Part shown: in pieces, positions 9,178 through 57,348 of the stretch
How the letters are laid out: every line of letters begins with the position of its first letter
Position numbering within the stretch: the stretch's first letter is position 1
Source of the DNA: Porphyromonas sp. oral taxon 275
GTDB lineage: Bacteria; Bacteroidota; Bacteroidia; Bacteroidales; Porphyromonadaceae
NCBI RefSeq assembly: GCF_018127745.1
Contig: NZ_CP072333.1
Span: 682,001-746,000 of the forward strand
Reading direction: 5' to 3'
DNA length: 64,000 nucleotides
Notes under the pieces: model-generated
Told to the model about the DNA's origin: nothing
What the model saw: the letters and a program-made list of their open reading frames with translations, nothing else
Database searches by the model: none
Made by a program: the position numbers and the translations under genes

Positions 9178-9265
9178 TGAGGGATATCCCTCGGCCTCCT
9201 GACCGCTATCCCTCACGCTCGTGACGGACGCCCCTCAGCGCTCTGACTGGTATCCCTCACGGGGG
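9178..9265 (+). repeat. Four-unit 88-bp intergenic element, copy 1
   Basis: Four 22-bp units lie head to tail (9178, 9200, 9222, 9244). Unit 1 holds the palindrome GAGGGATATCCCTC; unit 2 TGACCGCTATCCCTCA; unit 3 TGACGGACGCCCCTCA; unit 4 TGACTGGTATCCCTCA; each ends in six more variable, GC-rich bases. The same architecture is seen at 18.1, 24.2, 32.8, 39.1, 49.0 and 57.1 kb. Here it lies between the metK terminator and the tsaE promoter. Confidence 0.9.
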
Positions 9266-9364
9266 CTCCTTCTAGGGACGCAGCTCGGGGCGACTTGCCT
9301 GTCCTCTCTGCGATTTTATAAATAGGGTAGGGGAAGAGGTGCTGCTTCGTCCCGATAGAAGCAG

Positions 9365-9405
9365 CTAGCCCCGATAGCGTGGCGGGTGCCGTCTATCGGG
9401 GCTAG
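9365..9405 (-). terminator. Probable metK terminator hairpin
   Basis: A perfect 13-bp stem (CTAGCCCCGATAG, 9365-9377, with its complement 9393-9405) and 15-base loop lies 40 bases past the metK stop. There is only a short T-rich stretch after it on the minus strand, so termination efficiency is unclear. Confidence 0.6.
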
Positions 9406-9444
9406 TAGAGCATGGGCTTAGCTCCTAAGAGGGAGCTGGGGCAG

Positions 9445-10743
9445 CTAAGCCTTGATGCCGAAGGCCTCGCGCACCTGATCTACGTAGTCGAGACGCTCCC
9501 AGGTGAAGAGCTCGACGTCGAGGCTCAGCGTGCTGCCGTCGTAGTTATTGACCGTGCGGGTCACGCGGCGGGGCTCACGGCCGAAGTGTCCGTAGCTCGC
9601 CGTAGCCTGGTAGATAGGCTTGCGCAGCTGTAGGCGCTGCTCGATGGCATAGGGGCGTAGGTCGAAGAGCTGCTGGATGCGCTCGGCGATCTCGCTATCG
9701 CTCAGCCCTACGTGGGACGTGCCGTAGCTGTTGACGAAGATGCTGATGGGCTTGGCCACCCCGATGGCGTAGGCCAGCTGCACCAGAAGGCGGTCTGCGA
9801 CGCCAGCAGCGACGAGGTTCTTGGCGATATGGCGCGCAGCGTAGGCTGCCGAGCGGTCTACCTTAGAGGGGTCCTTACCCGAGAAGGCGCCGCCACCATG
9901 CGCCGCACGACCGCCGTAGGTGTCGACGATGATCTTGCGCCCCGTCAGGCCCGTGTCTCCGTGGGGGCCTCCGATGACGAACTTGCCCGTGGGGTTGACG
10001 TAGAGCTTGAAGTCCGCATGCTCGATCTGCTCGAACTCGGCGGCGTAGCCAGCAAAGACGCGGGGCAGAAGGTGCTGGCGGATGTCGGCCGTGATCTTGG
10101 CCTGCATCGCAGCGTCGGCTGCTGCCTGTGCCTCGGGGCTCTTGTCCTGGGGCTGGATGAACTCATCGTGCTGCGTGCTGATGACGATGGTGTCGATGCG
10201 CAGAGGCTTGCCCTCCTGGCTGTACTCGACCGTGACCTGGCTCTTGGCATCGGGGCGTAGGTAAGGCATCAGCTCGGGCTCCTCCTTACGGATGCGAGCT
10301 AGCTCCTCCAGCAGCGCGTGCGAGAGGTCAAGGGTCAGGGGCATATAGGAGGGGGTCTCGCGGCAGGCGTAGCCGAACATGATCCCTTGGTCTCCTGCGC
10401 CCTGCTCCTCAGGTTGTGTGCGGTCTACCCCGCGGTTGATGTCGGCACTCTGCTCGTGGATGGAGGAGAGCACGGCGCAGCTATTGCCGTCGAAGCAGTA
10501 GTCACTCTTGTTGTAGCCGATCTGGCGGATGACCTCGCGGGTGATCTCCTGGAGGTCTATGTAGGCCTTGCTCTTGACTTCGCCAGCGAGGATCACCTGC
10601 CCCGTCGTGACGAGGGTCTCACAGGCGACCTTGGACTGCGGGTCGAGGGCGAGGAAGTGGTCGAGGATGGCGTCGGAGATCTGGTCTGCGACTTTGTCGG
10701 GGTGTCCTTCGGAGACGGACTCCGAGGTGAAGAGGTAGCTCAT
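9445..10743 (-). CDS. metK: S-adenosylmethionine synthetase
   Basis: Makes S-adenosylmethionine from methionine and ATP in the cytoplasm. The 432-residue sequence has the N-terminal [18 protein letters not shown] block, DQGIMFGYA for adenine binding, the loop [21 protein letters not shown] and [19 protein letters not shown]. It is longer than the usual 380-400 because of an insert near residues 150-230 rich in Glu, Ala and Gln, a form common in Bacteroidota. It stands alone between two terminators and is led by a SAM-II-like aptamer and terminator (10797-10945), so its own product probably shuts it off. Confidence 0.97.
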
Positions 10744-10796
10744 AGCTATATATCTTGTAGTTATTTGGTTGATAGGAGGCCGAGCGCCTATAACGT

Positions 10797-10829
10797 AAAA
10801 AGCCTTGGCTGCAGTGGGGCAACCAAGGC
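10797..10829 (-). terminator. metK: Intrinsic terminator in the metK leader
   Basis: On the minus strand GCCTTGGTTGC (10829-10819) pairs with GCAGCCAAGGC (10812-10802) as an 11-bp stem with one G-U pair around a 6-base loop CCCACT, followed at once by five T (10801-10797). This is a textbook terminator 53 bases before the metK ATG, which would stop all transcription unless opened; the aptamer upstream offers the opener (see the riboswitch). Confidence 0.85.
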
Positions 10830-10891
10830 GCGATAAGGGCGTTCACTCTGTCCTGCCGCAGCACTCGAGCCAGCAGGCTACTGGTGGCGGC

Positions 10892-10945
10892 GTGACGGGT
10901 TTAGCATTTTTTCGCGTGGTTGCAAGCATCACAAATCTGTCCACG
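10892..10945 (-). promoter_or_regulatory. metK: SAM-II-like riboswitch aptamer controlling metK
   Basis: The minus strand from 10945 reads CGTGG (P1), a loop with GATTTG and GCTTGCAA, CCACG (P1 closing, 10919-10915), an A-rich joint, then TGCTAAA and CCCGTCAC. P1, the GATTTG/TTGCAA loop and the 3' GCTAAA are the hallmarks of the SAM-II family, and loop GUGA can pair with 3' UCAC to make the expected pseudoknot. It begins about 20 bases after a -7 box (10973-10966) and precedes the metK terminator. GCAACCA plus CGCG of the aptamer (10923-10913) are complementary to TGGTTGC plus CGCG of the terminator arm (10832-10819), so ligand-free RNA could open the terminator. Family call is from motif memory, not a covariance search. 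Confidence 0.75.
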
Positions 10946-10965
10946 TACTGGTCTCTTAGCCGCCA

Positions 10966-10973: not shown

Positions 10974-11018
10974 CGAAAAAAAGCGATGTAGCTTATCTCG
11001 TCCCTTGTGGAGCGCCCT

Positions 11019-18071: not shown

Positions 18072-18159
18072 TGACGGGTATCCTTGGGCGCGCTGACAGA
18101 TATCCTTCAGACGGCTGACAGGCATCACTGAGAGCGCCGACTGATATCCTTCAATGAGC
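18072..18159 (+). repeat. Four-unit 88-bp intergenic element, copy 2 (diverged)
   Basis: Units start at 18072, 18094, 18116 and 18138, all 22 bp: TGACGGGTATCCTTGG, TGACAGATATCCTTCA, TGACAGGCATCACTGA, CGACTGATATCCTTCA. This is the most diverged copy (CCTTCA in place of CCCTCA), lying between the decayed end of the CRISPR array and the tracrRNA candidate. Confidence 0.8.
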
Positions 18160-18458: not shown

Positions 18459-19184
18459 ATGAAACAACTCAAGATCGTACTCATCGGCTACGGCAAGATG
18501 GGACGCATCATCGAGCATATCGCTCAGGAGCGTGGCCACCAGGTCGTGCTCACGATAGACCGAGGCGAAGAGGCGCTCTTCGATGATCCGCGCTTTGCTT
18601 CGGCGGATGTAGCCATCGAGTTCACCTCCCCCCAGGCAGCCTATGCCAACTGCTTGAAGACCTTAGAGCGGGGCCTACCCTTGGTCTCTGGCTCTACGGG
18701 CTGGAGTGAGCGTCTGCCCGAGCTCAAGACACTCTGCGAGCAGGAGGGGAAGACCTTCTTCTGGTCCTCCAACTTCAGTATCGGCGTCTACCTCTTCCGT
18801 CAGCTCGTGGCTCAGGCCTCGCGGCTGATGAAGCTGGCCCCTGACTATCAGCTCAGCATGAGCGAGACGCACCACGTGCACAAGCTAGATGCCCCCAGCG
18901 GTACGGCTATCACGCTGGCCGAGACGGTGCTGGCCGAGCGCCCAGAGCTCGAGCGCTGGACGCTTGGTGCAGCTGTGGAGGGCGAGTTGCCTGTCGTGGC
19001 CTATCGCGAGGGCGAAGTCCCAGGGACGCATAGCCTGAGCTTCACCTCCGGTGTAGATCGTATCGAGCTGACGCACGAGGCCTTTGGGCGCGAAGGCTTT
19101 GCTCACGGTGCTGTCCTCGCAGCCGAATATGCCGCCACGCATAGCGGTTGGCTGACGATGGAGGACCTCCTGCAGTCTCGTTAA
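18459..19184 (+). CDS. dapB: 4-hydroxy-tetrahydrodipicolinate reductase
   Basis: Reduces hydroxy-tetrahydrodipicolinate with NAD(P)H in the lysine and diaminopimelate pathway that feeds peptidoglycan synthesis. The 241-residue protein has the nucleotide-binding VLIGYGKMGR at residues 6-15, the acidic residue after the second strand (TIDRGEE), SGSTGW, FSIGVYLF and the active-site loop ETHHVHKLDAPSGTA. Length is at the short end for the family, as common in Bacteroidota. It is followed by lepB after 22 bases. Confidence 0.95.
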   Translation: MKQLKIVLIGYGKMGRIIEHIAQERGHQVVLTIDRGEEALFDDPRFASADVAIEFTSPQAAYANCLKTLERGLPLVSGSTGWSERLPELKTLCEQEGKTFFWSSNFSIGVYLFRQLVAQASRLMKLAPDYQLSMSETHHVHKLDAPSGTAITLAETVLAERPELERWTLGAAVEGELPVVAYREGEVPGTHSLSFTSGVDRIELTHEAFGREGFAHGAVLAAEYAATHSGWLTMEDLLQSR

Positions 19185-21337: not shown

Positions 21338-21993
21338 TGCACTACGACCTCCTGCTCTCCACGGCGCTGACGCCCCCCATCAGCTACTTCACCCTCCTGT
21401 ATCATCACCAGTCGGGTAGGGTAGGCCTTGAGGCTGCCGAGCACTACATCAAGCAGAGCTACCGCAATCGCTGCTACATCCTCGGGCCTAACGGCGTGCA
21501 GCCACTGAGCATTCCCGTGGAGCTCCCCCAGGGGACGAAGACCCCCATCACCGAGGTGCGTCTCTCTACGCACGGGCAGTGGCGCTCCGTCTGGCATCAG
21601 ACCCTAGCCACGGCCTATGGTGCTAGTCCCTACTACGAGTACTACATCGACGAACTGGAGGCGCTGTGGGGCACCCTCGAGGACGATAGCCTCTGGGCCC
21701 TGAACCTGAGGCTGCTGCAGCACCTCTGTCCCCTGCTCGAGATCGACCCCGCCTGCCTCTGCCCGACCGAGGACTTCACTCCGCTGGAGTGCCACGAGGC
21801 GGACTACCGCTATAGCCTGCGCCCCAAGCAGGGCACACTGCCCCCTGCCTACCTCCCCCAAGCCTATCATCAGCTCGATCGACCCGCTCGGGGCTTCGTC
21901 CCTGAGCTCAGTATCCTCGATCTCCTCTTCAATATGGGGCCCGAGAGTCCCCTTATTCTCCAAGCTAGCTACCATCCCTATCCTCATGAATAA
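21337..21993 (+). CDS. WbqC family protein
   Basis: A 218-residue member of the WbqC-like family, often encoded near surface polysaccharide genes and thought to act in sugar or amino sugar modification, though not well studied. The conserved start (PISYFTLLYH), SYRNRCYILGPNGVQPLSIPV and the central KTPITEVRLS...W...W block are present. The ATG at 21337 overlaps the upstream TGA, a coupled start; a TTG codon directly before it is not needed. It overlaps the oligopeptidase gene by 8 bases. Confidence 0.8.
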   Translation: MHYDLLLSTALTPPISYFTLLYHHQSGRVGLEAAEHYIKQSYRNRCYILGPNGVQPLSIPVELPQGTKTPITEVRLSTHGQWRSVWHQTLATAYGASPYYEYYIDELEALWGTLEDDSLWALNLRLLQHLCPLLEIDPACLCPTEDFTPLECHEADYRYSLRPKQGTLPPAYLPQAYHQLDRPARGFVPELSILDLLFNMGPESPLILQASYHPYPHE

Positions 21994-24088
21994 GCCAAAG
22001 CAATCAGCCTTCGGCCCAGCCCCTCGTGTGGCTTCGCGCCCCGAGGAGCTGCGTCACCTCGATGACCTACGTGTCGACCCCTACTACTACCTGCGGGACA
22101 AGGAGCTCCCCGAGCTACAGGACTACCTCCAGGCCGAGAATGCCTACACCGAGGAGGTGATGGCCTCGACCCAGGAGCTGCAGGAGGAGATCTATCAGGA
22201 GATCGTGGGGCGCATCAAGGAGACCGACCAAAGCTATCCCACACTGCGCCGAGGCTATTACTACTATACCCGCACCGAGCAGGGCAGGCAGTACCCTAGC
22301 TATTACCGCTACGAGGAAGAGGCCTTCGACGAGCGCTGGAGTGAGCGCCCGCAGGAGGTGGAGGGTGGCGAGCTGATCTTCGACGTCAACCTCATGGCCG
22401 AGGGGCAGCCCGCCTATATCTTCGCAGGCTATAGCGTCAGCCCTGATAATCGCTGGGTAGCCTATATGTCCAATACGACGGGCTCCTACGCCGAGTTCGA
22501 CCTCAGGATCAAGAGCCTCGAGACGGGGCAGGAGCTGCCGCTGTGCATCGCGGGCGTCGCTTCGCTGGCCTGGGCTGAGGATAGTGAGACCATCTACTAC
22601 AGCCTGATCGACGAGACGCTGCGCTCTAGCCGCGTCCTTCGTCAGCGTCTCGACGAGGCCGAGGGGCAGCTGATCTACGAGGAGCTGGATGGCCGCTTCT
22701 CCTGCAGCGTCAGCGAGACCAAGACGCACGAATACCTCTTCATCTCCTGCTCGAGCAGCACCAGTAGCGAGGAGTACTACCTGGCTGCGGACGGGCGGGA
22801 CACAGAGCCCAAGCTGCTGCTAGCGCGCCAGCCCGACGTGCGCTACTCGGTGCTGACGCACCGCGATCGCCTCTACCTATACTATAAGGATAAGGAGCAG
22901 CTCAACGGCGCCCTCTACGCGACGAGCCTCGAGGGCGTGGCTGACCGCTCCTCCTGGCGTACGATCCTGGCGCATCGCCCCGAGGTGCGCCTCGAGAGCC
23001 TCGGCATCTACGAGCACTATGTGGTGACGGAGGAGCGCGTCGAGGGCCTCTCGCAGATCCGCATCCTCGATCCGCTGGGGCAGCCGCTGCGCGAGGTCGC
23101 CTTCCCCGAGCCCGTCTATACGCTGGCTCTGAGAGGTAGCAGCCAGTACAGCACGCGCAAGGTGCGCTACACCTATTCCTCGCCCAATAGACCCAGCAGC
23201 CTCTATGAGTACGACCTCGAGACGGGGCAGAGTCGACTGCTCAAGCAGCAGGAGGTCGGCGGGGGCTACCAGCCAGAGGACTACATCGTGGAGCGCCGCT
23301 GGGCGCTCGGCGAGGACGGCACGACGCGCATCCCTATGGCCTTGCTCTACCGTAAGGGCCTCAAGCGCGATGGCTCGGCGCCTGCTCTGATCTACGGCTA
23401 TGGGAGCTATGGGATCTCGATGGAGGCACAGTTCAGCGTCTCTATCCTTAGCCTCGTGGATCGTGGCTTCGTCTATGCGCTGGCTCAGGTGCGTGGCGGG
23501 AGCGAACTCGGGGAGCAGTGGTACGAGGATGGCAAGTTCCTCAAGAAGGAGCATACCTTCACTGACTTCGCTGCCTGCGCCCGTCTCCTCGTGGATGAGG
23601 CTTATACCTCCCCCGAGCGTTTGGCAGCTATGGGGGGCAGCGCGGGCGGTATGCTGATGGGGGTCGTGGCCAATCGCTGGCCCGAGCTCTTCGGCTGTAT
23701 CGTCGCCCAGGTGCCCTTCGTGGACGTCGTGACGACGATGCTTGACGATAGCCTACCTCTGACGACAGGGGAGTACGAGGAGTGGGGCAATCCCAATGAG
23801 CCGGAGTACTACCACTATATGAAGGGCTATTCCCCCTACGACAACCTCCGTGCGCAGCGCTATCCTGCGATGCTCGTCACGGGCGGGATCAATGACTCGC
23901 AGGTCCTCTTCCACGAGCCGACCAAGTACGTGGCGAAGCTGCGCAGCCTCAAGACGGATGACGAGCTCCTCTTGCTGCGCATGAATATGGACTCGGGCCA
24001 CGGCGGCGCTACGGGGCGCTACAGCGGGATACGCGACACGGCCTTTGAGTACGCCTTCATCCTCTACGCCCTAGGGCTTGTCTCCTAG
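21986..24088 (+). CDS. ptrB: Oligopeptidase B (prolyl oligopeptidase family, S9A)
   Basis: Serine peptidase expected to cut short peptides after basic residues. The 700-residue protein has an N-terminal seven-bladed propeller region and a C-terminal alpha/beta hydrolase domain with the nucleophile in MGGSAGGMLMG, a downstream acidic residue in VTGGINDSQVLFHEP and the catalytic His in DSGHGGATGRY. The start PRVASRPEELRHLDDLRVDPYYYLRD and the length match oligopeptidase B. No signal peptide is seen, so it acts in the cytoplasm or periplasm by other means. Confidence 0.9.
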   Translation: MNKPKQSAFGPAPRVASRPEELRHLDDLRVDPYYYLRDKELPELQDYLQAENAYTEEVMASTQELQEEIYQEIVGRIKETDQSYPTLRRGYYYYTRTEQGRQYPSYYRYEEEAFDERWSERPQEVEGGELIFDVNLMAEGQPAYIFAGYSVSPDNRWVAYMSNTTGSYAEFDLRIKSLETGQELPLCIAGVASLAWAEDSETIYYSLIDETLRSSRVLRQRLDEAEGQLIYEELDGRFSCSVSETKTHEYLFISCSSSTSSEEYYLAADGRDTEPKLLLARQPDVRYSVLTHRDRLYLYYKDKEQLNGALYATSLEGVADRSSWRTILAHRPEVRLESLGIYEHYVVTEERVEGLSQIRILDPLGQPLREVAFPEPVYTLALRGSSQYSTRKVRYTYSSPNRPSSLYEYDLETGQSRLLKQQEVGGGYQPEDYIVERRWALGEDGTTRIPMALLYRKGLKRDGSAPALIYGYGSYGISMEAQFSVSILSLVDRGFVYALAQVRGGSELGEQWYEDGKFLKKEHTFTDFAACARLLVDEAYTSPERLAAMGGSAGGMLMGVVANRWPELFGCIVAQVPFVDVVTTMLDDSLPLTTGEYEEWGNPNEPEYYHYMKGYSPYDNLRAQRYPAMLVTGGINDSQVLFHEPTKYVAKLRSLKTDDELLLLRMNMDSGHGGATGRYSGIRDTAFEYAFILYALGLVS

Positions 24089-24198: not shown

Positions 24199-24286
24199 CG
24201 AGGGATAGCGGTCAGGACGCTGACTGCTATCCCTCGCACGCTTTATGGACGTCCCTCAGCCTCGTGACTGATATTCCTCAGGCACC
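24199..24286 (+). repeat. Four-unit 88-bp intergenic element, copy 3
   Basis: Units start at 24199, 24221, 24243 and 24265. Unit 1 is reversed (GAGGGATAGCGGTCA) so that units 1 and 2 form an inverted repeat with TGACTGCTATCCCTC around six bases. Unit 3 holds GGACGTCCCTCAG and unit 4 TGACTGATATTCCTCA. The flank after unit 4 (CTTCCCCTTATCTCTG, 24288-24303) resembles that of copy 6. Confidence 0.9.
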
Positions 24287-24421: not shown

Positions 24422-24429
24422 TACCTTTG
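24422..24429 (+). promoter_or_regulatory. Promoter -7 box for the FKBP gene cluster
   Basis: TACCTTTG is an exact Bacteroidota -7 box, 90 bases before the first FKBP start; no TTTG at the right spacing upstream. Confidence 0.45.
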
Positions 24430-24519
24430 TCCCCGTATTATCCCAGTCTCTCGGTAGCGGGCTCTTGCCTCGCCCTTCGTAGGGCTGCGGACGCACTAGA
24501 TACATTATATATAAAGGAT

Positions 24520-32805: not shown

Positions 32806-32893
32806 TGACTGATATCCCTGAGCGAGCTGACGGACGTCCCTGAGGTCGGTGACTGATAGCCCTCACGGCGCTGAAGGATATCGCTCAGCCCCC
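32806..32893 (+). repeat. Four-unit 88-bp intergenic element, copy 4
   Basis: Units start at 32806, 32828, 32850 and 32872: TGACTGATATCCCTGA, TGACGGACGTCCCTGA, TGACTGATAGCCCTCA, TGAAGGATATCGCTCA. In this copy the GGACGTCC unit is second, not third. It lies between a terminator and the nusB promoter. Confidence 0.9.
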
Positions 32894-33098: not shown

Positions 33099-33203
33099 TC
33101 GTACAGCTAGAGGATAGCCTGGTGATCTTTGCTCATAGGGACTGGTAGTCGTCACACCGAAGAGTACTGTCATCCGTCCCGAGAGCTCAAGGAATCAAAC
33201 GAT

Positions 33204-39148: not shown

Positions 39149-39236
39149 TGATGGATATCAGTCAGGCTGCCCAGGGGCGTCACTCAGCAGCGTGACTGGT
39201 ATCATTCAGAGGGCTGACGGCTATCCCTCACGGAGC
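39149..39236 (+). repeat. Four-unit 88-bp intergenic element, copy 5
   Basis: Units start at 39149, 39171, 39193 and 39215: TGATGGATATCAGTCA (reversed sense), CCAGGGGCGTCACTCA, TGACTGGTATCATTCA, TGACGGCTATCCCTCA. It lies between convergent dprA and the MBOAT gene, before their shared terminator. Confidence 0.85.
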
Positions 39237-47453: not shown

Positions 47454-48224
47454 CTAGAGCAGGGCAAAGTATACGGGCGAGGGATTGGGCTGCTGACGGA
47501 GCTCGAGGAAGATGCGCAGCGCGGCCCAGGCGTCGAGGGCAGCGTAGTGGATCTGTGCGGGGCTGAGCTCCTTGGCCTCCCAGTTGCTCATCCGGGAGGC
47601 CTTGCTCATGCGCTCCTTGAAGAGGATGGCGTAGATCTTCTGCAGGCCGAGCTCGCGTATGCCGTAGCCGAAGCAGAGCTTCTGCAGCTCGACGAAGGAG
47701 CCGGGCTCGAAGGGGCGCAGACGTCTCAGGCAGCGCACATCGTCCGAGAGGCTCAGGCCGATCTTGAGGATCTTCTCATCCGAGAGGAGGTTCGCCAGCG
47801 CTACGGAGAAGCCGATGAGGTTCAGTCGGAAGAGGTAGCAGTCCGTGGGGGTGGCTATCTGCAGTAGCGATACCTCGTAGCGTATGCCCTGCGTGAAGCT
47901 CGGGCGCGTCTCGGTGTCGATGCCGATGACCTCGTGGCGGCGTATCTTGGCGATGGCCTTGCGTGCCTCCTCCTTGTCGGTGATGACGTGCAGGGGGACG
48001 GGGCACTTAGCCAGGGGGAGTGCCTCGAGTTCGCTCTCGAGGATATGGCTCGGGTAGAGGTAGGGTGGGTGGAGCTGTACCTTGGGCTGCTCCTTGCGGC
48101 GCTTCTGCTCCTTGATCTCGGCTCCCTCTGGGTGCTCGGTGCGCTGGCCCTTGGAGCTGCTGCGCTTGCTGCTTTTAGAGGTACTCTTCGTCCTCTTCGT
48201 TGTCGTCTGCGTAGTCTTCGTCAT
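47454..48224 (-). CDS. 3'-5' exonuclease domain protein (RNase D-like)
   Basis: A 256-residue DEDDy exonuclease: IDTETRPSF (Exo I), GLSLSDDVRCL (Exo II) and HYAALDAWAAL (Exo III with Tyr and Asp), so the active site is complete and it probably trims RNA or DNA 3' ends. There is no HRDC domain, so it is shorter than E. coli RNase D. The first 45 residues are Thr/Ser/Lys-rich and basic; their codons overlap the acidic end of the upstream gene by 50 bases in another frame. Confidence 0.87.
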   Translation of the reverse strand: MTKTTQTTTKRTKSTSKSSKRSSSKGQRTEHPEGAEIKEQKRRKEQPKVQLHPPYLYPSHILESELEALPLAKCPVPLHVITDKEEARKAIAKIRRHEVIGIDTETRPSFTQGIRYEVSLLQIATPTDCYLFRLNLIGFSVALANLLSDEKILKIGLSLSDDVRCLRRLRPFEPGSFVELQKLCFGYGIRELGLQKIYAILFKERMSKASRMSNWEAKELSPAQIHYAALDAWAALRIFLELRQQPNPSPVYFALL

Positions 48225-48762
48225 CTTCTTCTAGTCGGAGGAGCTGGGTGTAGGTGCGATGGAGCGAGGTCAAGGCCTCGAGTAGATGCGCTCCCCAGTA
48301 TTCGCGGAAGTAAAGGATACAGCGCCCGATGGCTGCCGGGAGGGCGCGCTCGTTCTCATCGCGTAGCACCCCGAGGAGGTTGCCCACCTGCTGGTAGACA
48401 TCAGCCAGGTACTCCGAGACGAAGACCGCCAGCGGCGTATCGCTGTACTGCATCTCCTCGCCCTGGCAGGAGAGGAAGCTATCATCCTCGTCCAGCAGGG
48501 AGGCGATACCAAGGCGTATACGCTCGTAGCTCTCCTCGCTGACGAACTCAGGGACTAGGTCCTCCTCCGCATTATATAGGTAGTCGGGCAGTCGGAGCGT
48601 CGCGTAGTAGAGCTGGGGGAGTAGGCTGAGCGCCTGCTCGATGAAGGGGCGCTTCTCTAGGGAGCGTCCCTCGAGTAGGGCGGCTGTCTTCACCCCAAGG
48701 GCAGCAAACTCTAGGACCTCGGTCGTGTAGAGGGTCCCGGTGACTTGTTCCTTTGATTCCAT
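48175..48762 (-). CDS. DUF5063 domain protein
   Basis: A 195-residue, mostly helical, acidic protein of a family typical of Bacteroidota; no function known to me. The N-terminus (TTEVLEFAALGVKTAALLE) and the PFIEQALSLLPQLYYATLRLP block are conserved, and the last 20 residues are nearly all Asp, Glu and Tyr. It overlaps the exonuclease gene by 50 bases and is followed by it closely, so the two are likely made together. TATTTTTG lies at 48778-48771 on the minus strand, so close to the ATG that the mRNA would be almost leaderless. Confidence 0.82.
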   Translation of the reverse strand: MESKEQVTGTLYTTEVLEFAALGVKTAALLEGRSLEKRPFIEQALSLLPQLYYATLRLPDYLYNAEEDLVPEFVSEESYERIRLGIASLLDEDDSFLSCQGEEMQYSDTPLAVFVSEYLADVYQQVGNLLGVLRDENERALPAAIGRCILYFREYWGAHLLEALTSLHRTYTQLLRLEEDDEDYADDNEEDEEYL

Positions 48763-49013: not shown

Positions 49014-49101
49014 TGAGGGGTATCCCTCGGCCCTCTGACTGGCGTCCCTCAGAGACGGCACGGACGTCCCTCAGCGCCCTCACTGATATCCCTCAGCTAG
49101 C
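49014..49101 (+). repeat. Four-unit 88-bp intergenic element, copy 6
   Basis: Units start at 49014, 49036, 49058 and 49080: TGAGGGGTATCCCTCG, TGACTGGCGTCCCTCA, GCACGGACGTCCCTCA, TCACTGATATCCCTCA. The right flank CTCCCCTTCATCTCTG (49102-49117) resembles that of copy 3. This copy lies between divergent genes. Confidence 0.9.
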
Positions 49102-49336
49102 CTCCCCTTCATCTCTGAGTAGCGACCAAGGATAGCCCAGCCTCGGGCACACTCTAAGGGGTGCAGCATCATAGGGCTGCCCCTAGCTGGTTCCCGAGAG
49201 CTAAGGCCTAAGGTGCCCCACTAGGATGACTTGTCCCCTTCCTTACCTATTATAATAGGGGAGAAGGATCGAGGAGCAGAAGCTGCCTTGCCCCTTGTCA
49301 GCCTCCCGAGGGAGCGGCATAGTGCGCCTATTTGGC

Positions 49337-49344
49337 TATTTTTG
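49337..49344 (+). promoter_or_regulatory. ruvA: Promoter -7 box of ruvA-sprA
   Basis: TATTTTTG, matching TAnnTTTG, 34 bases before the ruvA ATG; the -33 box is not recognisable. Confidence 0.4.
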
Positions 49345-49377
49345 TGCCTACTCAAGGATACGACTAATCTTACCTCT

Positions 49378-50001
49378 ATGATTGCTTACCTCAAAGGACT
49401 ATATACCGAGCTGAGCCCTACGGCTGTGACCGTGGAGTGCGCAGGCGTCGGCTACGCCGTCTCCATATCGCTGACGACCTACTCTGCCCTGATGGGGCAG
49501 CGCGAGGGGCGGCTGCTCATCACGGAGATCATCCGTGAGGACGCCCATCTGCTCTACGGCTTCGCCACGAGCGCAGAGCAGGAGCTCTTCCGTCACCTCA
49601 TGAGCGTCTCGGGTGTCGGGCCCAATACGGCGCGCATCATCCTCAGCTCGTACCCTCCTATGGAGCTCAATAGCATCATCACCCTCGGGCAGATCGAGCC
49701 ACTCAAGGCCATCAAGGGGATAGGCCTCAAGACCGCCCAGCGCATCCTCGTCGACCTGCGTGGCAAGCTCCCTCCCATGGACGAGCTGCCCGCAGACGAA
49801 GCTCGCCCCAGCGGCGCCTCCGCCTCCGCGAGGTCGCGCCAGCAGCCGCTCGATACCGCCACGCCCAGCGAGGCCATCAGCGCGCTCAAGATGCTGGGCT
49901 TCCCCGAAGCTGCTGCGCAGAAGGTCGTACGCCAGCTCATCGCCTCCGATCCCACGATCTCGGTCGAGGAGCTGATCAAGCAGAGTCTCAAGCTCCTCTA
50001 G
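49378..50001 (+). CDS. ruvA: Holliday junction branch migration protein RuvA
   Basis: Tetramer that holds Holliday junctions for the RuvB motor in recombination repair. The 207-residue protein starts MIAYLKGLYTELSPTAVTVEC (OB fold), has the two helix-hairpin-helix motifs (LMSVSGVGPNTARIILS and IKGIGLKTAQRILVDLRGK), an Ala/Ser-rich linker near residues 140-160 and the C-terminal RuvB-binding helices. The ATG at 49378 was set by this conserved start. sprA follows after 5 bases. Confidence 0.96.
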   Translation: MIAYLKGLYTELSPTAVTVECAGVGYAVSISLTTYSALMGQREGRLLITEIIREDAHLLYGFATSAEQELFRHLMSVSGVGPNTARIILSSYPPMELNSIITLGQIEPLKAIKGIGLKTAQRILVDLRGKLPPMDELPADEARPSGASASARSRQQPLDTATPSEAISALKMLGFPEAAAQKVVRQLIASDPTISVEELIKQSLKLL

Positions 50002-50006
50002 AGCGC

Positions 50007-53000
50007 GTGCGTCGGAGCTGCGTCGTCTATGTCGTCTGTCTCGGGCTGGGCCTCGCGCCTAGCTCGCAGCCCTCAGCGGCACAGCGCCTAGCCAGCGCCC
50101 TCGACAGCACCGCCCTGAGCCTGAGCTACCGAGGCGGGCTCCTAGAGCAGCGCTTCGTTTACGATCCCCGCACCCAGCTCTATCTGCTGACCAGCTACGT
50201 CGCAGGGCAGCCTCTCGGCGAGGCCGTGCCCTATACTCGGGAGGAGTATCTGAGGCTACGGGCGCAGTGGGGAGAGGCGCGCTACTGGGCGGAGCTCAAT
50301 AAGGAGGGAGGCGTACGGGCGCAGGGCTTCGACCCGCTCAGCCTCCGTCCGCAGCGGGTCTCGGCGATTGACCGCGCCTTTGGCCCAGGAGGCCTGCAGC
50401 TCACCCTTCAGGGCTCTGTAGAGCTGAGGGGCGGGGTGCGCAGTGTCGTCAATCCCAATCCGCTGCTCAGCCAGCGGGCGCGTCGTCGGGAGGACTTTGA
50501 CTTCGGCGAACAGATACAGGCCAGCCTCGATGCACGCCTCGGGACCCGCCTCGGGCTCAAGCTCCACTACAATAGCAGCTCTACCTTCAGCGTTGACAGC
50601 CGGCAGCTGCGCCTGCGCTATGAGGGCCGAGAGGATGACATCCTGCGCTTCGTCGAGCTCGGGCAGGTCCAGCTCCAGTCGCGCAATCGCCTGATCCATG
50701 GCGGTGGCTCCGCACTTGGACTGCGGGCACAGATGCAGCTGGGACGCCTGACGGCCGACCTGCTGGTGAGCCAGCAGCGCAGCCAGCTGCATACGCTCCA
50801 GACGCAGGGCGGGGTGCAGACGCAGGAGTTCAGCTGCCGCTCCAGTGACTATGATGCCTCGCGGCACTTCTTCCTCTCGGGCTTCTTCCGTGCACGCTAT
50901 GAGGAGGCGCTGCGCCAGCTTCCGCACATACGCTCAGCGGTGCGTATCACGCGTGTGGAGCTCTGGGTGACCAATAGACGCGGCGACTACAGCGCTTCGC
51001 GTAGTCTGCTGGCGCTGGCGCAGCTGGCCGATCCTGCCCGAGGAGATACGCAGCAGCCCCCGCACAACGAGGCGGGCTTGGGCTACCGCAGGCTGAGTGC
51101 CCTACCTCAGCTCCGCATGCTAGGCGGCGTCGAGACGACGCTGGCGGGGACGGGGCTACGCGCTAGCTGGGACTACGAGGCGCTGGAGCATGCGCGACGT
51201 CTCGAGCCCAGCGAGTACACGCTGCAGCCCGAGCTCGGCTACATCAGTCTCAAGACGGCGCTAGCGCCCGACGAGGTGCTGGCGGCGGCCTTCGAGTACA
51301 GCTATGAGGGACGTATCTATCGGGTGGGGGACTTTGCTCGTGGCGATGTGGGGGCTCAGGGTGGGCGCCTCTTCGTCTCGCTCTTGAAGGGGACGGAGCC
51401 GAGCCCCGAGACGCCCTACGGCTCCTTGATGATGCGCAATGTCTACCGCATCGGCTCGGGGACGACGAAGCTCGAGCCTAAGGGCTTCGAGCTCGAGATC
51501 AACTATCAGGATGCCGCTACGGGGCTTAGCCTCCCGTACCTAAGTGAGGGTCCGCTGAAGGGGCAGACGCTTCGTAGCCTCCTCGGCCTCGACCGCCTCG
51601 ACCGTAGCGGGGTGCAGCGCCCCGATGGGCACTTTGACTTTGTCGAGGGCTACACAGTGCGCAGTAGTGAGGGGCTCATCATCTTCCCCACGCTGGAGCC
51701 CTTCGGGAAGACCCTCGAGGGGCTGCTGGGCTCTGAGCCATGGAAGGGGCGCTACAGCTACCCCGAGCTCTACAGCCAGACGAAGGCAGAGGCTGCGCGC
51801 GTGACGGCTAAGGACAGATACCAGCTGCGGGTGCGCTACGAGGGACGTACCCTCGGGGAACTCGACCTCGGGCGCCGTGAGGTAGACCCCGAGTCCCTGC
51901 GTCTACGTGCTGCAGGGCAGGAGCTGAAGCCCGGAGTTGACTACCTCCTCGACGCCAGCGCGGGTAAGGTACGCATCCTCAACCAGCAGCTCCTCGAGAG
52001 CAATACGCCCATAGAGGTCTCGCTGCAAGGCGCAGCCGAGCAGGCGATGACGCGCCGCAACCTCGTGGGGCTGGAGCTAAACTACGAGCTCAGCAAGCAG
52101 CTGAAGCTGGGCGCGACCCTCATGCACCTCAGCGAGCAGCCTGGGAGCAGTCGCCTCCGGGTGGGGCAGGAGCTGCTGCGCAATACCATGTGGGGCGCGC
52201 ATCTGAGCTACGAGGCCGAGAGCATGCGCCTGACTGACTGGCTCAATAAGCTCAGCTGGGGGCACTTCACCGTCCCCTCTCGCATCCAGCTGACGGGGCA
52301 GTTCGCTCAGCTCCACGCGGGGACGGGGACGGACGGCTATGATGATGGGGCGAGCAGCTTGGATGACTTCGAGCAGGCACGTAGCGGCATCGACCTGATG
52401 AACCCGATGAGCTGGCACCTCGCCGCTACCCCCGTGACGCTCAGCCCGCGCTTGGGGCAGGGGCTGGCGCAGAACGGCGAGCGGGCACTGCTCTCGTGGT
52501 TCAGCATCGACCCGATATTCTCGCAGCACCGCAGCAGCCAGACCCCCGCCTACATACGCAACAACCCCGACCTCGTCAGCAACCACTTCGTCCGCGACGT
52601 GCTGAGCTCGGAGCTCTATCCCTACCGTGAGCAGCTCCTCAGCCAGGCGAGCTATCTCCCGACGCTCTCCCTAAGCTATTACCCCAGGGAGCGCGGCCCC
52701 TACAACCTCAATGCCGCAGCCCTCACCACCGAGGGCTATATCGCCGAGCCCGAGCGCAGCTGGGCCGGGATCACACGGAGGGTAGACCAGACGGACTTCG
52801 ACCAGGCGGGTATTGACTACCTCGAGTGCTGGCTGATGGATCCTTTCGTCTATGAGCCTACAGCACGTGGCGGCTCGCTCTTCATCAACCTCGGGGAGAT
52901 CTCGGAGGATGTCCTTCCCGATGGCTACAAGGCCTATGAGAACGGCCTCCCGCTGACCGATGATCCCGCCTCGACGCGCAGCACGCTCTGGGGGCGCGTC

Positions 53001-56000
53001 TCCACACAACCCAGTGTGGGCTATAGCTTCGCTACCTCAGCCGAGGGCCTGAGGAAGCAGGACGTCGGCCTTGACGGCCTTGCCTCGGCGGCCGAGCAGA
53101 GCCATCCCAGCTACGGCAGTTACCTCGCCCAGCTGCGCAGCCGTATGAGTGCCGCGACCCTCTCCCGCTGGGGACAGCAGCCCATGAGCCCGCTGAGGGA
53201 CCCTGCAGGGGATGACTTCCACCACTACAGAGGCTCTGACTACGATGCCGCTCAGCTACCCATCCTCGAGCGCTACAAGTACTATAATGGTACGGAGGGC
53301 AACTCGACGGATGCCGACTATGCAGCCAGCGCGAGCCCCGACACCGAGGATATCAATAGAGACAATAGCCTGAACGAGGCCAACCGCTACTATGAGTATG
53401 AGGTCAAGCTAAGCCCCGAGGCGCTACGCGTCGGGCAGGGCTTCGTCGTCGGCGAGCGTAAGGTCGATGTGCAGCTACGCAATGGGCAGACCTCGGAGGT
53501 GCGCTGGTACCAGCTGCGTATCCCGCTGCAGGCGCCTACGCGCCGGGTCGGGGGCATCGAGGACTGGCGTAGCATACGCTTTATGCGCCTTTACCTCAGG
53601 GGCTTCGATAGGACGACGCAGCTACGCTTCGGGGCACTCCGCCTGATGCGGGGGGACTGGCGCGCCTGGCAGGGGAGCCTCGGGGAAGAGCAGGGGGCGG
53701 CAGCTGCCGCGGCTCCGAGCGTAGAGGATGGCGGCCTGCTCGTCTCCTCGGTCAATATCGAGGAGCATGGGGATCGCCGCCCGATCAACTACGTCTCGCC
53801 TCCCACCAGCGCCCGCCAGCTGGGGCAGCGACTAGGGCAGAGCCAGCTGCAGAACGAGCAGGCGCTCTCGCTCAAGCTCCGTGAGCTCGAGCCGCAGCAG
53901 GCACGCGCCGTCTACCGCAGCGTGCAGTACGACCTCAGGCGCTACGGGCGCTTGCAGCTCTTCGTCCACGCTGAGCAGCTCCTCGAGCAGCCGACGGACA
54001 CCCAGGACGATGAGCTCCAGCTCTTCCTCCGCTTAGGCTCGGACTACACGCGCAACTACTATGAGTACAGCCTCCCGCTCAAGCTCACCGCCCCGGGACG
54101 CTATGCCAATGAGCTGGCCTCCGACCGTGCTCGGGTGTGGCCCCTAGCCAATATGATCGACCTTGCCCTAGAGCAGTTGCCGCAGCTCAAGCAGCGACGT
54201 AATGCTCTCGCGGCTACCCGTCCCGAGCAACTCTATCGGCGCTACAGTGAGCCCGACCCCGAGCACCAAGCGGCCCAGTGGAGCGTGCTTGGCAACCCCA
54301 GCCTAGCGCATGTCCGCTCGCTGATGATCGGTGTGCGCAATCGTTCGGGGCAGGTGCGCAGTGCTGAGATCTGGGTCAATGAACTCCGTGCCAAGGACTA
54401 TAGCGCTCCTGGGGGATGGGCAGGTAGCGGACAGCTGGGGCTCCAGCTCTCGGATCTAGGTACGGCTAATGTCAGAGCGCACTATCAATCGGCGGGCTTT
54501 GGCGCTATTGACCAGGCGCGCGCGCAGCAGTCCTTGGAGTCACGCAAGAGCCTAAGCCTCTCGCTGCGTGCCGACCTGGGGAAGCTCCTGCCGCAGGGCG
54601 TGAAGCTCCGTGCCCCCATCTACTATGCGCTCAATAGCGAGGAGGCGCGCCCCGAATACGCCTCGGGAGCGGAGGACCTACGCCTTAGTGAGGTGCTGGA
54701 TGCCGCACCTACGGAGGCGGAGCGGCACGCCCTGCTGCAGCGCAATCAGCGTGGGCGCAGTAGCCAAAGCCTCTCACTGACGGGACTTCGCCTTGAGCAG
54801 CGCTCCCGCAAGGCTATGCCTTATGACCCAGCCAACCTTTCCCTTAGCTTTATGCAGAATAGCAGCCAGGAGCACAGCCCCGAGACGGAGTACCGCCGCA
54901 CGCTCGATTGGCAGGGTAGCCTCAACTACGACTATAGCCCGAGCTGGGAAGCCTGGCGCCCCTTCCGTAGCCTCTCAGGTGCGGGCGCCTGGCGGCAGTT
55001 CCTCAGGCAGTATGGTCTCAAGCTCTGGCCCGAGAAGCTCAGCCTACAGACCAGCATGCAGCGCCACTATGATGAGGAGCAGCTGCGCAGCATCACGCCG
55101 CAGGGCGTGGAACCGAGTGCGCTGGCGCCTAGCTGGTCGCAGCTCTTCCTCTGGAACCGACGTCTAGACCTCAGCTGGACGCCACTCACCGACCTCCACC
55201 TTAGTCTACAGGCAGGAACCGATACACGTATCGAGGAGCCGCACCGCCAGGTCAATCGCCAGCTCGACCCCGATGGCTGGCGGGTCTGGCGCGACTCTGT
55301 CCTAGAGAGCATCGCCGCGGGAGGTACGCCGCTGCACTATGGGCAGCAGACGAGCCTCAGCTGGCAGCTCCCGACGACACGCATCGCGCCGCTCTCCTTC
55401 CTCACGGGTCAGCTCAGCTATCACGCTAGCTATACCTGGGATCGGGGTACGCTGCTCCCACTAGAGACCGAGCAGCTGAGCAATAGCCTAAGTAATGAGG
55501 GAAGTACCGAGCTGCAGCTACGCCTGCAGCTACGCAAGCTCTATCAACAAATCCCCTACCTGCGCCGCCTCGAGCAGCGCTATGGCTCGAGTGGCAGCGG
55601 CAAGCCGCAAGGTGTGACCTCCTGGCTCGACCGACTCGTCTACACCCTCCTGATGCCGCGGGAGCTCAGCCTCCACTGGCGACACAGCCAGCACAGCCTC
55701 GTCACGGGCTATCTGCCCCTCATCGGGAGCCTAGGGGGGCAGGTACAGCAGTCTAGTGGAGGCCTTAGCCCAGGGCTGCCCTTTGCCCTCGGGCTAAGCA
55801 CGCTCGAGACGCTGGAACAGCTCGCGCGCCGTGGAGAGCTGGTAGCAGACGCTAGCTACGCCCGTCCGCCCGTCTATAGCCTGACGCGTAGCCTAGACCT
55901 CAAGGCCACCCTGCAGCCGCTGCGCGACCTCACGATCACCCTTACAGCCAACCACACACGCACCGAGCGCACCGAGCTCCAGTACTACTATCCCGAGGCT

Positions 56001-57017
56001 CCACGGCTCTATGGCGGGGACTTCACGATGACGACGATTGGCCTCAGGGGCTTCTTCGCCCAGCCCCGACTAGAGGCAGGCTATCGCTCGGCGAGCTTCG
56101 AGCGCTTCCTCGACTACAGGGCACGGATCGCCGCGCGACAGCATGCCCGCAGTCCCGAGCCCTTGGTGCAGCTGGAGGCGAATGATCCCGCGGTCTTGAT
56201 CCCCGCCTTCCGTGCCGCCTATGGCCTAGCTGGAGGAGCCGAAGGCGTGAGCCTCGAGGCACTGCCAGGCCTTGGGAGCCTGCTCCCCAACTGGAACATC
56301 TATTATTCGGGACTAAGCCGTCTGCCGCTCCTCAGCCGCTACCTACGCAGCGTCGTCCTGCGCCATGCCTATCGCGGCGTCTACACGGTCGGGGCTTACA
56401 ATAGCTTCGGTGACTGGCAGGGCACAGATCCCGACGGGCTGGGACTGCGGCCTCAGACGGAGGGCAGAGCACCGCGCCTCAGCTACGCCTATGACCTCGG
56501 GAGCGTGGCCCTGCAGGAGAGCTTCTTCCCCCTGATTGGGCTGGATCTGACCTGGCTTAATGGTCTTGGCCTCAGTACGCAGTGGCGTCGTAGTCGTGGC
56601 CTCGTGCTTGGGCTGAGCGCCCAGAGTATCGTGGAGACCTTCTCCGACGAACTGGCGCTGGACCTCGGCTATAAGGTGGCTGATCTCACCGAACTCTTGC
56701 GCCCCGGGCGCAGCCGTCGACGGAGCCCGAGAGGGGCTGTAGGTCGCGGCCTTATCCTTAAATCCTACTACAGCTACCAGCGCAGCCTAAGCCTCATCCG
56801 CCGCATCGAGGAGCTCTACACGCAGAGCCTCGCGGCGACAGACGAGCATCGCCTGCGCTTCAGCGCTGAGTACGAGCTGAGCAGCCTTGTCAGCCTGCGT
56901 GCCTACTACGAGTGGACCCGCAGCCGCAGTCAGGTCAGCAGCTATGCCTTCCCCATCACGCTGCGTAGCTACGGTCTCAGCCTACGTCTCTCGCTTCCTA
57001 GTTCGCTAGGACGCTAG
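50007..57017 (+). CDS. sprA: Type IX secretion system outer membrane translocon SprA (Sov)
   Basis: Giant outer membrane barrel through which type IX secretion moves folded cargo such as gingipains in P. gingivalis (where it is called Sov). The 2336-residue protein starts with GTG and a signal peptide (CVVYVVCLGLGLAPSSQPSAAQ), has many plug-like inserts, SprA-type blocks (RAQWGEARYW, GLQLTLQGSVELRGGVR, MSWHLAATPVTL), and ends in a run of beta strands with alternating aromatic residues (SYAFPITLRSYGLSLRLSLPSSLGR). Length agrees with SprA homologues of 2300-2500. It starts 5 bases after ruvA, an adjacency I recall from other Bacteroidota. porV at the right edge belongs to the same system. Confidence 0.95.
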   Translation: MRRSCVVYVVCLGLGLAPSSQPSAAQRLASALDSTALSLSYRGGLLEQRFVYDPRTQLYLLTSYVAGQPLGEAVPYTREEYLRLRAQWGEARYWAELNKEGGVRAQGFDPLSLRPQRVSAIDRAFGPGGLQLTLQGSVELRGGVRSVVNPNPLLSQRARRREDFDFGEQIQASLDARLGTRLGLKLHYNSSSTFSVDSRQLRLRYEGREDDILRFVELGQVQLQSRNRLIHGGGSALGLRAQMQLGRLTADLLVSQQRSQLHTLQTQGGVQTQEFSCRSSDYDASRHFFLSGFFRARYEEALRQLPHIRSAVRITRVELWVTNRRGDYSASRSLLALAQLADPARGDTQQPPHNEAGLGYRRLSALPQLRMLGGVETTLAGTGLRASWDYEALEHARRLEPSEYTLQPELGYISLKTALAPDEVLAAAFEYSYEGRIYRVGDFARGDVGAQGGRLFVSLLKGTEPSPETPYGSLMMRNVYRIGSGTTKLEPKGFELEINYQDAATGLSLPYLSEGPLKGQTLRSLLGLDRLDRSGVQRPDGHFDFVEGYTVRSSEGLIIFPTLEPFGKTLEGLLGSEPWKGRYSYPELYSQTKAEAARVTAKDRYQLRVRYEGRTLGELDLGRREVDPESLRLRAAGQELKPGVDYLLDASAGKVRILNQQLLESNTPIEVSLQGAAEQAMTRRNLVGLELNYELSKQLKLGATLMHLSEQPGSSRLRVGQELLRNTMWGAHLSYEAESMRLTDWLNKLSWGHFTVPSRIQLTGQFAQLHAGTGTDGYDDGASSLDDFEQARSGIDLMNPMSWHLAATPVTLSPRLGQGLAQNGERALLSWFSIDPIFSQHRSSQTPAYIRNNPDLVSNHFVRDVLSSELYPYREQLLSQASYLPTLSLSYYPRERGPYNLNAAALTTEGYIAEPERSWAGITRRVDQTDFDQAGIDYLECWLMDPFVYEPTARGGSLFINLGEISEDVLPDGYKAYENGLPLTDDPASTRSTLWGRVSTQPSVGYSFATSAEGLRKQDVGLDGLASAAEQSHPSYGSYLAQLRSRMSAATLSRWGQQPMSPLRDPAGDDFHHYRGSDYDAAQLPILERYKYYNGTEGNSTDADYAASASPDTEDINRDNSLNEANRYYEYEVKLSPEALRVGQGFVVGERKVDVQLRNGQTSEVRWYQLRIPLQAPTRRVGGIEDWRSIRFMRLYLRGFDRTTQLRFGALRLMRGDWRAWQGSLGEEQGAAAAAAPSVEDGGLLVSSVNIEEHGDRRPINYVSPPTSARQLGQRLGQSQLQNEQALSLKLRELEPQQARAVYRSVQYDLRRYGRLQLFVHAEQLLEQPTDTQDDELQLFLRLGSDYTRNYYEYSLPLKLTAPGRYANELASDRARVWPLANMIDLALEQLPQLKQRRNALAATRPEQLYRRYSEPDPEHQAAQWSVLGNPSLAHVRSLMIGVRNRSGQVRSAEIWVNELRAKDYSAPGGWAGSGQLGLQLSDLGTANVRAHYQSAGFGAIDQARAQQSLESRKSLSLSLRADLGKLLPQGVKLRAPIYYALNSEEARPEYASGAEDLRLSEVLDAAPTEAERHALLQRNQRGRSSQSLSLTGLRLEQRSRKAMPYDPANLSLSFMQNSSQEHSPETEYRRTLDWQGSLNYDYSPSWEAWRPFRSLSGAGAWRQFLRQYGLKLWPEKLSLQTSMQRHYDEEQLRSITPQGVEPSALAPSWSQLFLWNRRLDLSWTPLTDLHLSLQAGTDTRIEEPHRQVNRQLDPDGWRVWRDSVLESIAAGGTPLHYGQQTSLSWQLPTTRIAPLSFLTGQLSYHASYTWDRGTLLPLETEQLSNSLSNEGSTELQLRLQLRKLYQQIPYLRRLEQRYGSSGSGKPQGVTSWLDRLVYTLLMPRELSLHWRHSQHSLVTGYLPLIGSLGGQVQQSSGGLSPGLPFALGLSTLETLEQLARRGELVADASYARPPVYSLTRSLDLKATLQPLRDLTITLTANHTRTERTELQYYYPEAPRLYGGDFTMTTIGLRGFFAQPRLEAGYRSASFERFLDYRARIAARQHARSPEPLVQLEANDPAVLIPAFRAAYGLAGGAEGVSLEALPGLGSLLPNWNIYYSGLSRLPLLSRYLRSVVLRHAYRGVYTVGAYNSFGDWQGTDPDGLGLRPQTEGRAPRLSYAYDLGSVALQESFFPLIGLDLTWLNGLGLSTQWRRSRGLVLGLSAQSIVETFSDELALDLGYKVADLTELLRPGRSRRRSPRGAVGRGLILKSYYSYQRSLSLIRRIEELYTQSLAATDEHRLRFSAEYELSSLVSLRAYYEWTRSRSQVSSYAFPITLRSYGLSLRLSLPSSLGR

Positions 57018-57348
57018 GGGCTAGAGCTGTCCTGTCCTAGCCCAAGCGCCTTGCCTCCGTCCTCGTCTTTATGGGTGAGGAGGGAAGCATGCTGTATCGC
57101 ACTGCGCTGTGGGGTAAGGGGAGGGGCTGGTGAGGGATATCAGTCAGCGCGCTGAGGGACGTCCGTGACGGGCGCGAGGGATATCAGTGAGTTGGGCTGA
57201 GGGATAGCCCTCACGAGGGGTCGGACGAAGCGCTTGCTTCTTCCCTAGCTTCATGCTAAGGAAGTACCCCCCATCCTTTTGTGATCTAAGACATGCTCTG
57301 AGCCCTCGCCCCCCTGCCGTGTGGTGCGAAGGGGAGGCTTTAGTTCTG
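57018..57348. other. Gene-free stretch between convergent sprA and the endonuclease-family gene
   Basis: 331 bases holding the four-unit element (57125-57213, minus orientation). No clear terminator for sprA was found, which is unusual since the other convergent pairs have one. Confidence 0.55.
57125..57213 (-). repeat. Four-unit intergenic element, copy 7 (89 bp)
   Basis: Read on the minus strand, units are TGAGGGCTATCCCTCA (57213), TCACTGATATCCCTCG (57190), TCACGGACGTCCCTCA (57168), TGACTGATATCCCTCA (57146). One extra base between units 1 and 2 makes it 89 bp. It is the only copy in inverted orientation and preserves the unit order seen in copy 1 and 6 best. Confidence 0.9.

What the first reader, a model, noticed from the sequence alone, without database searches (positions are those of the whole stretch)
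9178..57213. A family of seven intergenic elements, each four tandem 22-bp near-palindromic units
Seven places (9178, 18072, 24199, 32806, 39149, 49014, 57125) hold the same design: exactly four units of 22 bp (88 bp; 89 in copy 7). The core of the unit is TGACTGATATCCCTCA or the full palindrome TGAGGGATATCCCTCA, followed by six variable bases; one unit, mostly the third, has GGACGTCCCTCAG. All seven lie between genes. Fixed unit number and length point to selection for a defined array, not to slippage. 22 bp is about two helical turns, so four dimer-type sites would face the same side of DNA. This could be a binding array for an unknown nucleoid, gyrase-type or regulatory protein (compare BIMEs in E. 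coli), or a small mobile element; P. gingivalis BrickBuilt MITEs are said to hold tandem repeats of similar unit size, but no terminal inverted repeats were seen here.
Basis: partly seen in the sequence, partly recalled or inferred. Interest (0 to 1): 0.85.

Follow-up and report, generated by a model that had tools for sequence, protein, structure and literature searches.

The report
Spaced four-unit palindrome arrays between genes
Between its genes this bacterium carries many copies of a short DNA array made of four evenly spaced near-mirror-image sites, its relatives carry the same kind of array in quite different sequences, and several of those sit right in front of genes for histone-like proteins, which suggests an undescribed way of organising bacterial chromosomes.

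Summary
In 864 kb of the window's genome I found 86 arrays; 76 have exactly four 22-bp units and none overlaps a predicted gene by more than 20 bp. They keep apart: 3 of 85 spacings are under 3 kb, 16.2 ± 3.2 expected. No other genome searched matched this sequence at E 0.01, but the design recurs: six relatives sampled carry 40-84 lag-22 arrays per Mb, of other near-palindromes, often several families per genome. In P. pasteri families avoid each other too (3 close pairs, 12.4 ± 2.9 expected). BrickBuilt is one such family. No hairpin covariation (108, 109), no RAYT link (49).

Lead to a reader: 36 of 56 HU-HIG (histone-like) genes have an array within 600 bp upstream (baseline 186 of 1514), mostly each its own motif, and dispersed arrays tend to match one of their own genome's. 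Best reading: cooperative dimer-binding arrays for nucleoid proteins. Against: the window's dominant family has no HU-HIG partner, two array-rich relatives have one strong HU-HIG gene each, and gap length was not matched.

The parts
9178..9259 (+). family A array, four units (82 bp core to core), between tsaE (8433-8885 -) and S-adenosylmethionine synthetase (9445-10743 -)
18072..18153 (+). family A array, four units, the most diverged of the seven by eye, upstream of dapB-like gene 18459-19184
24199..24280 (+). family A array, four units, between prolyl oligopeptidase (21986-24088 +) and FKBP isomerase (24427-25104 +)
32806..32887 (+). family A array, four units, between YitT-like (31579-32577 +) and NusB-domain gene (33129-34259 +)
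39149..39230 (+). family A array, four units, between convergent dprA-like (38237-39070 +) and MBOAT gene (39332-40855 -)
49014..49095 (+). family A array, four units, between divergent DUF5063 gene (48175-48762 -) and ruvA (49231-50001 +); in 10 of 22 testable relatives the 1500 bp before the ruvA match hold an array of another family
57131..57213 (-). family A array, four units with one 23-bp step, between convergent sprA (50007-57017 +) and an endonuclease/exonuclease/phosphatase gene (57349-58485 -); in 11 of 23 testable relatives the 1500 bp after the sprA match hold an array of another family

Best explanation
Each unit is the site of a dimeric DNA-binding protein; in the window's family four sites two helical turns apart are filled cooperatively, giving one bound segment of about 90 bp per array. 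Shown: sites, number, period, intergenic place, conservation of core over spacer, the same kind of array with other sequences in relatives, mutual avoidance at the 3-5 kb scale. Inferred: the readers are nucleoid proteins, for several families HU-HIG paralogues (HU-domain proteins), each controlling its own gene through the array in front of it, and the dispersed arrays mark operon-block boundaries about every 10 kb, perhaps as topological or structural anchor points.
For: Core positions 87% identical to the majority, spacers 61%, flanks 47% over 68 copies; the most conserved positions (3, 6, 11, 14) are dyad-symmetric and the same in all four units. In 66 copies arm positions 4-13 are unpaired in 58, 59 and 62 copies of units 2, 3 and 4 and positions 5-12 in 48, 30 and 52, and pairs do not covary, so not a hairpin (25 copies). 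Spacing: 3 of 85 under 3 kb against 16.2 ± 3.2, 0 of 5000 draws; P. pasteri 5 of 83 against 17.0 ± 3.0, and different-family neighbours 3 against 12.4 ± 2.9, P 0.00025. HU-HIG genes with 44 bits or more: 36 of 56 have an array within 600 bp upstream, baseline 186 of 1514, control lags 0 of 56. Motifs at HU-HIG genes mostly differ from gene to gene: own B, C, E, never A; P. pasteri six arrays at seven genes, six motifs, four of them rare in the genome and two common. Of confidently matched dispersed arrays, those matching best an HU-HIG array of their own genome: own 8 of 11 (17 examined), G004 32 of 62 (70), G025 6 of 6 (12), G022 1 of 1 (7); label permutation P 0.012, 0.030, 0.017, 0.10. Protein identity and motif similarity correlate weakly (Mantel 0.18, P 0.013); the two cross-genome pairs at 94-95% identity share the motif.
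Against: No HU-HIG gene found carries a family A array upstream; of 64 A arrays only 2 matched any HU-HIG array confidently. G017 and G020 have one strong HU-HIG each, without an array upstream, yet 65 and 60 lag-22 arrays per Mb in several families. Arrays sit in 84 of 139 own gaps of 300 bp or more, so enrichment at genes with long upstream gaps is partly expected; I did not match for gap length. In G004 30 of 62 confident arrays matched another genome's HU-HIG array better. A looser scan separated same from other genomes poorly: 17.8 vs 11.9, 25.9 vs 16.4, 24.0 vs 14.4 and 28.3 vs 3.6 matches per Mb. Pairs at 87-90% protein identity have low motif similarity. Strong HU-HIG matches are rare outside this bacterial family (2 of 24 other-order genomes better than E 1e-12), while lag-22 arrays may reach further. 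Unit number is not fixed at four in P. pasteri. HU proteins are usually weakly sequence-specific (recalled).
Confidence: 0.5

Rival explanations
1. Mobile-element remains: family A is an old MITE-like element whose array hitchhiked, as proposed for BrickBuilt; sites have no present function.
For: Copies share unit-specific variants (unit 3 CG, unit 1 symmetric) and weak flanks, so they descend from one element. The R1 search gave no match at E 0.01 in relatives (it scores a capped number of candidates and loses weak ones). Three near-identical HU-HIG loci with their family C array look like copies of a 1-kb module. BrickBuilt was described as a MITE with IS5-type ends (PMC4596501, parts read).
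Against: Neutral decay would not spare the same dyad-symmetric core positions in every unit; different families avoid each other; no inverted repeat of 12 bp or more spans the 5 elements tested; no high-copy gene in the sampled own stretch.
Confidence: 0.25
2. Operators of ordinary transcription regulators (for example octameric Lrp/AsnC-type proteins, four dimers on four sites; recalled), many regulators per genome.
For: Palindromic cores, two-turn period, four sites; a mild excess between divergent genes, 29 of 86 against 46 of 194 gaps of 150 bp or more.
Against: 13 of 86 lie between convergent genes, about the share of convergent gaps (28 of 194); copy number and even spacing are unusual for a regulon. 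Lrp families were not searched.
Confidence: 0.15
3. RNA or cruciform structure: hairpins, terminators or attenuators.
For: Four folded window arrays have z -4.2, -1.3, -2.6 and -2.1 against shuffles, as any palindromic array would tend to.
Against: Neither the unit hairpins nor the whole-array hairpin covaries in 66 copies: 19 against 21.4 and 72 against 73.3 cells changed on both sides.
Confidence: 0.05
4. REP/BIME-type elements spread by a RAYT transposase.
For: One Y1_Tnp gene in the genome.
Against: Y1_Tnp at E 0.001 in 3 of 26 genus genomes, none in G004 and G025 which have arrays; the repeats around the own RAYT-like gene are different.
Confidence: 0.02

Closest known systems
BrickBuilt (P. 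gingivalis 23-nt minisatellite MITE, PMC4596501)
   Same: Intergenic, near-palindromic tandem unit of about two helical turns, flanking leader and tail; in G025 one array of the 23-mer stands in front of an HU-HIG gene (locus L326), and the paper's Table 1 lists a PF00216 DNA-binding gene beside BrickBuilt_14.
   Different: 23-nt unit of another sequence, 1 to 22.8 repeats, 19 copies, IS5-like terminal repeats; here 22 bp, 76 of 86 with four units, 86 in 864 kb, no terminal repeats seen in 5 tested.
REP/PU and BIMEs of E. coli (recalled)
   Same: Many intergenic palindromic repeats, proposed contacts with nucleoid proteins and gyrase.
   Different: No fixed four-unit array, RAYT-linked; here many exchangeable families and no RAYT link.
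HU-HIG / TIGR01201 HU-related proteins (PF18291)
   Same: Candidate readers. All 37 genomes of this bacterial family have a PF18291 match at E 1e-16 or better, 3 to 17 matches each.
   Different: The model also matches ordinary HU (it rings in E. coli), so counts include canonical HU. Binding sites are not described in the papers found; the one P. gingivalis HU paper opened (PMC3969353, outline and abstract only) concerns canonical HU PG0121.

Membership tests
BrickBuilt MITE | 23-nt unit sequence | tested here: not met
   0 matches to the 19-nt core seen in G025 with up to 3 mismatches in the window; 22-22-22 in 68 of 76 four-unit arrays
BrickBuilt MITE | variable repeat number (1-22.8) | tested here: not met
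   76 of 86 arrays have four units
BrickBuilt MITE | terminal inverted repeats GAGACCTTTGCA type | tested here: not met
   3 matches with up to 2 mismatches in the window, 4.4 expected by chance; no inverted repeat of 12 bp or more spans the 5 tested elements
BrickBuilt MITE | intergenic | tested here: met
   0 of 86 in predicted genes
REP/BIME with RAYT | RAYT transposase that shares the repeat | tested here: not met
   3 of 26 genus genomes have Y1_Tnp; repeats beside the own gene differ
Rfam RNA family | match to a described RNA family | tested here: not met
   only a tRNA and a SAM-II riboswitch reach the gathering score in the window
HU-HIG-read arrays | same motif in front of an HU-HIG gene of the genome | tested here: inconclusive
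   met for own families B, C and E and several of P. pasteri and G025; not met for the dominant family A
HU-HIG-read arrays | the protein binds the array | not testable with these tools
   needs binding data

The most novel reading that the evidence does not exclude
Porphyromonadaceae, and perhaps Bacteroidales at large, carry a chromosome-marking code: sets of paralogous, self-regulated histone-like HU-HIG proteins, each reading its own short array of two-turn-spaced palindromes, and these arrays, whatever their sequence, together mark operon-block boundaries at about 10-kb intervals; sequence families are replaced from species to species while architecture and spacing stay.
Probability: 0.3. 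Interest if true: 0.95.

Novelty: new variant of a known kind. Interest (0 to 1): 0.85.

Why it matters
As far as I recall, bacterial chromosome domains of about 10 kb lack known fixed, sequence-encoded boundary sites. An array class with conserved design, conserved spacing and exchangeable sequence, tied for some families to histone-like paralogues, would offer such sites and make the question testable. It would also recast BrickBuilt, so far called a MITE, as one of many such families.

Tried and rejected
Rejected: RNA hairpins, REP/RAYT, Rfam families, a tail terminator hairpin common to all copies (scattered stems), arrays as recombination breakpoints (26 of 27 testable array gaps are not conserved in P. 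pasteri, but 16 of 19 array-free gaps of 200 bp or more are not either). One search's single-linkage family split lumped families and was replaced. One search read minus-strand loci the wrong way round; one search replaces it; one search stopped on a script error. One search was too permissive and is reported as inconclusive. Own minor families against family A: all 12 arrays gave no significant avoidance (median P 0.064, under-3-kb P 0.45); family B alone, chosen afterwards, did (0 of 8 under 3 kb, P 0.016, median P 0.044), and two of those eight (348225 and 351651) look like a local duplication. CV of own spacing is not below the null on all data (0.77 vs 0.85, P 0.16), only without the two array-poor regions (0.60 vs 0.76, P 0.0024). 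Literature: ten searches were answered, one of them with no paper; by titles and abstract starts none describes four-unit 22-bp arrays or HU-HIG binding sites, apart from BrickBuilt; the library holds open-licence papers only. PMC5771137 was seen in passages only.

Full report
Check. A model of 25 copies found 171 matches at E 1 or better in the 2.18-Mb genome although only 150 of 2224 first-look candidates were scored. I fetched 40 stretches around the window, 864 kb in all with it, and scanned them with a 16-bp matrix. 86 arrays have two or more units; 76 have exactly four. Density is one per 10.1 kb; about 217 in the genome by extrapolation (inference).

Anatomy. Aligned in one direction, the copies show unit-specific features: unit 1 tends to the full palindrome TGAGGGATATCCCTCA, units 2-4 prefer TGAC on the left, unit 3 has a CG centre. 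Core positions agree with the majority in 87%, spacers in 61%, the 45-bp flanks in 47% (68 copies). The copies therefore probably descend from one element, but the core has been kept while spacers drifted. Mean pairwise identity of the 82 bp is 72%, the highest 88%: an old set.

Place. 0 of 86 overlap predicted genes; 29 are between divergent, 44 between co-directional and 13 between convergent genes, against 46, 120 and 28 of 194 gaps of 150 bp or more. 84 of 139 gaps of 300 bp or more hold one, 2 of 430 shorter gaps do, and never two in a gap. Against random choice among the 194 gaps, close pairs are far too few: 3 under 3 kb, expected 16.2 ± 3.2.

Relatives. The family A model gave no match at E 0.01 or better in 60 relatives or the 25 others of the genus (two weak matches, best E 0.036, in G004); these searches score only 75 or 150 candidates per genome. 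A two-unit pattern gave none in 84,980 species genomes and none, in a looser form, in viral contigs (records near the own genome may be left out there). Lag 22 stands out in all seven genomes sampled (own, G004, G020, G025, G022, G017, G031): 89, 84, 60, 45, 40, 65 and 62 arrays per Mb; none in shuffled sequence; other lags average 0 to 0.17 arrays per stretch, but 0.9 and 1.1 in G020 and G017, which also have many lag-21 and some lag-14 repeats. G031 is of another genus, 80 kb only. In 63 loci of Prevotellaceae and other Bacteroidales (1.11 Mb) lag 22 gives 27 arrays against 0-6 for lags 19, 20, 23, 25, 26, 28 and 29, but lags 14, 16 and multiples of three are also raised, so this is suggestive only. 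In 50 kb of E. coli no lag-22 array appears. 0 of 157 arrays in six genomes lie mainly in predicted genes. Unit number is less fixed outside the window's family: in P. pasteri 31 of 34 arrays have 3 to 6 units, most often five, by a self-similarity caller that undercounts in the own genome. What is shared is thus period, near-palindromy and place rather than the number four.

Same flank, other sequence. In the 1500 bp after the sprA match 12 of 24 genomes, and before the ruvA match 11 of 23, have an array (own included), control lags 0, coding side 0 of 24 each; the families differ between most species. Genes in general have one upstream within 1500 bp in 13-27%, but these are operon ends, so the excess is not proof of conserved position. 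Operon order itself is scrambled between own and P. pasteri.

Families exclude each other. In 800 kb of P. pasteri 84 intergenic arrays (of 90; three control lags gave 6) lie 9.3 kb apart on average; 5 of 83 spacings are under 3 kb against 17.0 ± 3.0; for neighbours of different family 3 against 12.4 ± 2.9 (P 0.00025). Recombination between copies or family-specific target immunity would not explain avoidance between families; a shared function would (inference). In the own genome the same test on minor families against A is not significant for all 12. One own array at 1000407 is mixed: a family A unit, four family B units and two A-like units in the same 22-bp register.

Reader. Of 20 genes beside minor-family arrays two were HU-HIG genes. 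I then examined HU-HIG matches in eight genomes: 56 of 58 with 44 bits or more (one masked, one with a stop not fetched). 36 of 56 have an array within 600 bp upstream, baseline 186 of 1514 genes; without near-identical copies 33 of 53. Of matches under 44 bits, 2 of the 8 examined. The motifs mostly differ from gene to gene: own C (three near-identical loci), B, and AACGTATACGTT; P. pasteri six arrays, six motifs; G025, P. gingivalis by its BrickBuilt 23-mer, ten arrays at 14 genes with nine motifs, BrickBuilt among them. Dispersed arrays tend to match an HU-HIG array of their own genome (permutation P 0.012, 0.030, 0.017, 0.10 in own, G004, G025, G022). PF18291 matches all 61 genomes searched, but the model also catches ordinary HU; matches at E 1e-16 or better are in all 37 genomes of this family and in 2 of 24 others. 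Against: family A has no such partner, G017 and G020 have one strong HU-HIG and many arrays, gap length was not matched, and protein-to-motif correlation is weak (Mantel 0.18, P 0.013). So HU-HIG as reader is well motivated for some families and open for the dominant one.

Known? BrickBuilt (abstract, part 1 of the text, sections 5 and 8 and part 1 of section 7 read; passages) is the nearest published case and, by the 23-mer in G025, one family of this kind. Its authors mention 22-nt tandem repeats in strain W83 without places. I found no account of the design as a whole in the searches listed. The verdict is a real, selected, genome-wide array class; mechanism at even odds.

Noticed in passing
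G000:C1:34967-35302 (L079): A single RAYT-like Y1_Tnp gene surrounded by many other repeats of the type GCCCTGCAGGGGCGACC: looks like an ordinary REP/RAYT pair, apart from the arrays.
   Followed up: partly
L296, L297, L298 (G000:C1 562677, 1225201, 2091038): Three HU-HIG loci with identical domain sequence, 92-93% identical DNA over about 1 kb, each with a family C array upstream: looks like a copied gene-plus-array module.
   Followed up: partly
G000:C1:1000407-1000560 (L071): Mixed array: a family A unit, four family B units and two A-like units in the same 22-bp register.
   Followed up: partly
G000:C1:348093-351870 (L042): Two family B arrays 3.4 kb apart with very similar flanks: a local duplication.
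   Followed up: no
G000:C1:481300-521300 and 1053075-1104600: Two stretches of about 40 and 52 kb without family A arrays, possibly acquired islands; the second holds a family B array.
   Followed up: no
window 10891-10950 (-): SAM-II riboswitch upstream of the S-adenosylmethionine synthetase gene 9445-10743.
   Followed up: no
L100-L109 and L130-L139 (G020, G017): Composite arrays mixing CCACGTGG and CTTCGGAGGAA units at 21-22 bp, and separate TCTAACC-type 7-bp repeats.
   Followed up: no
L281:16722, L292:12300, L262:11352: Near-perfect 22-bp palindrome arrays in Prevotella-type records (AGTAAAATAGGCTATTTTACT, ACCAAAATAGCTTATTTTGGTC, AAAGTTCGCGAACTTT).
   Followed up: partly
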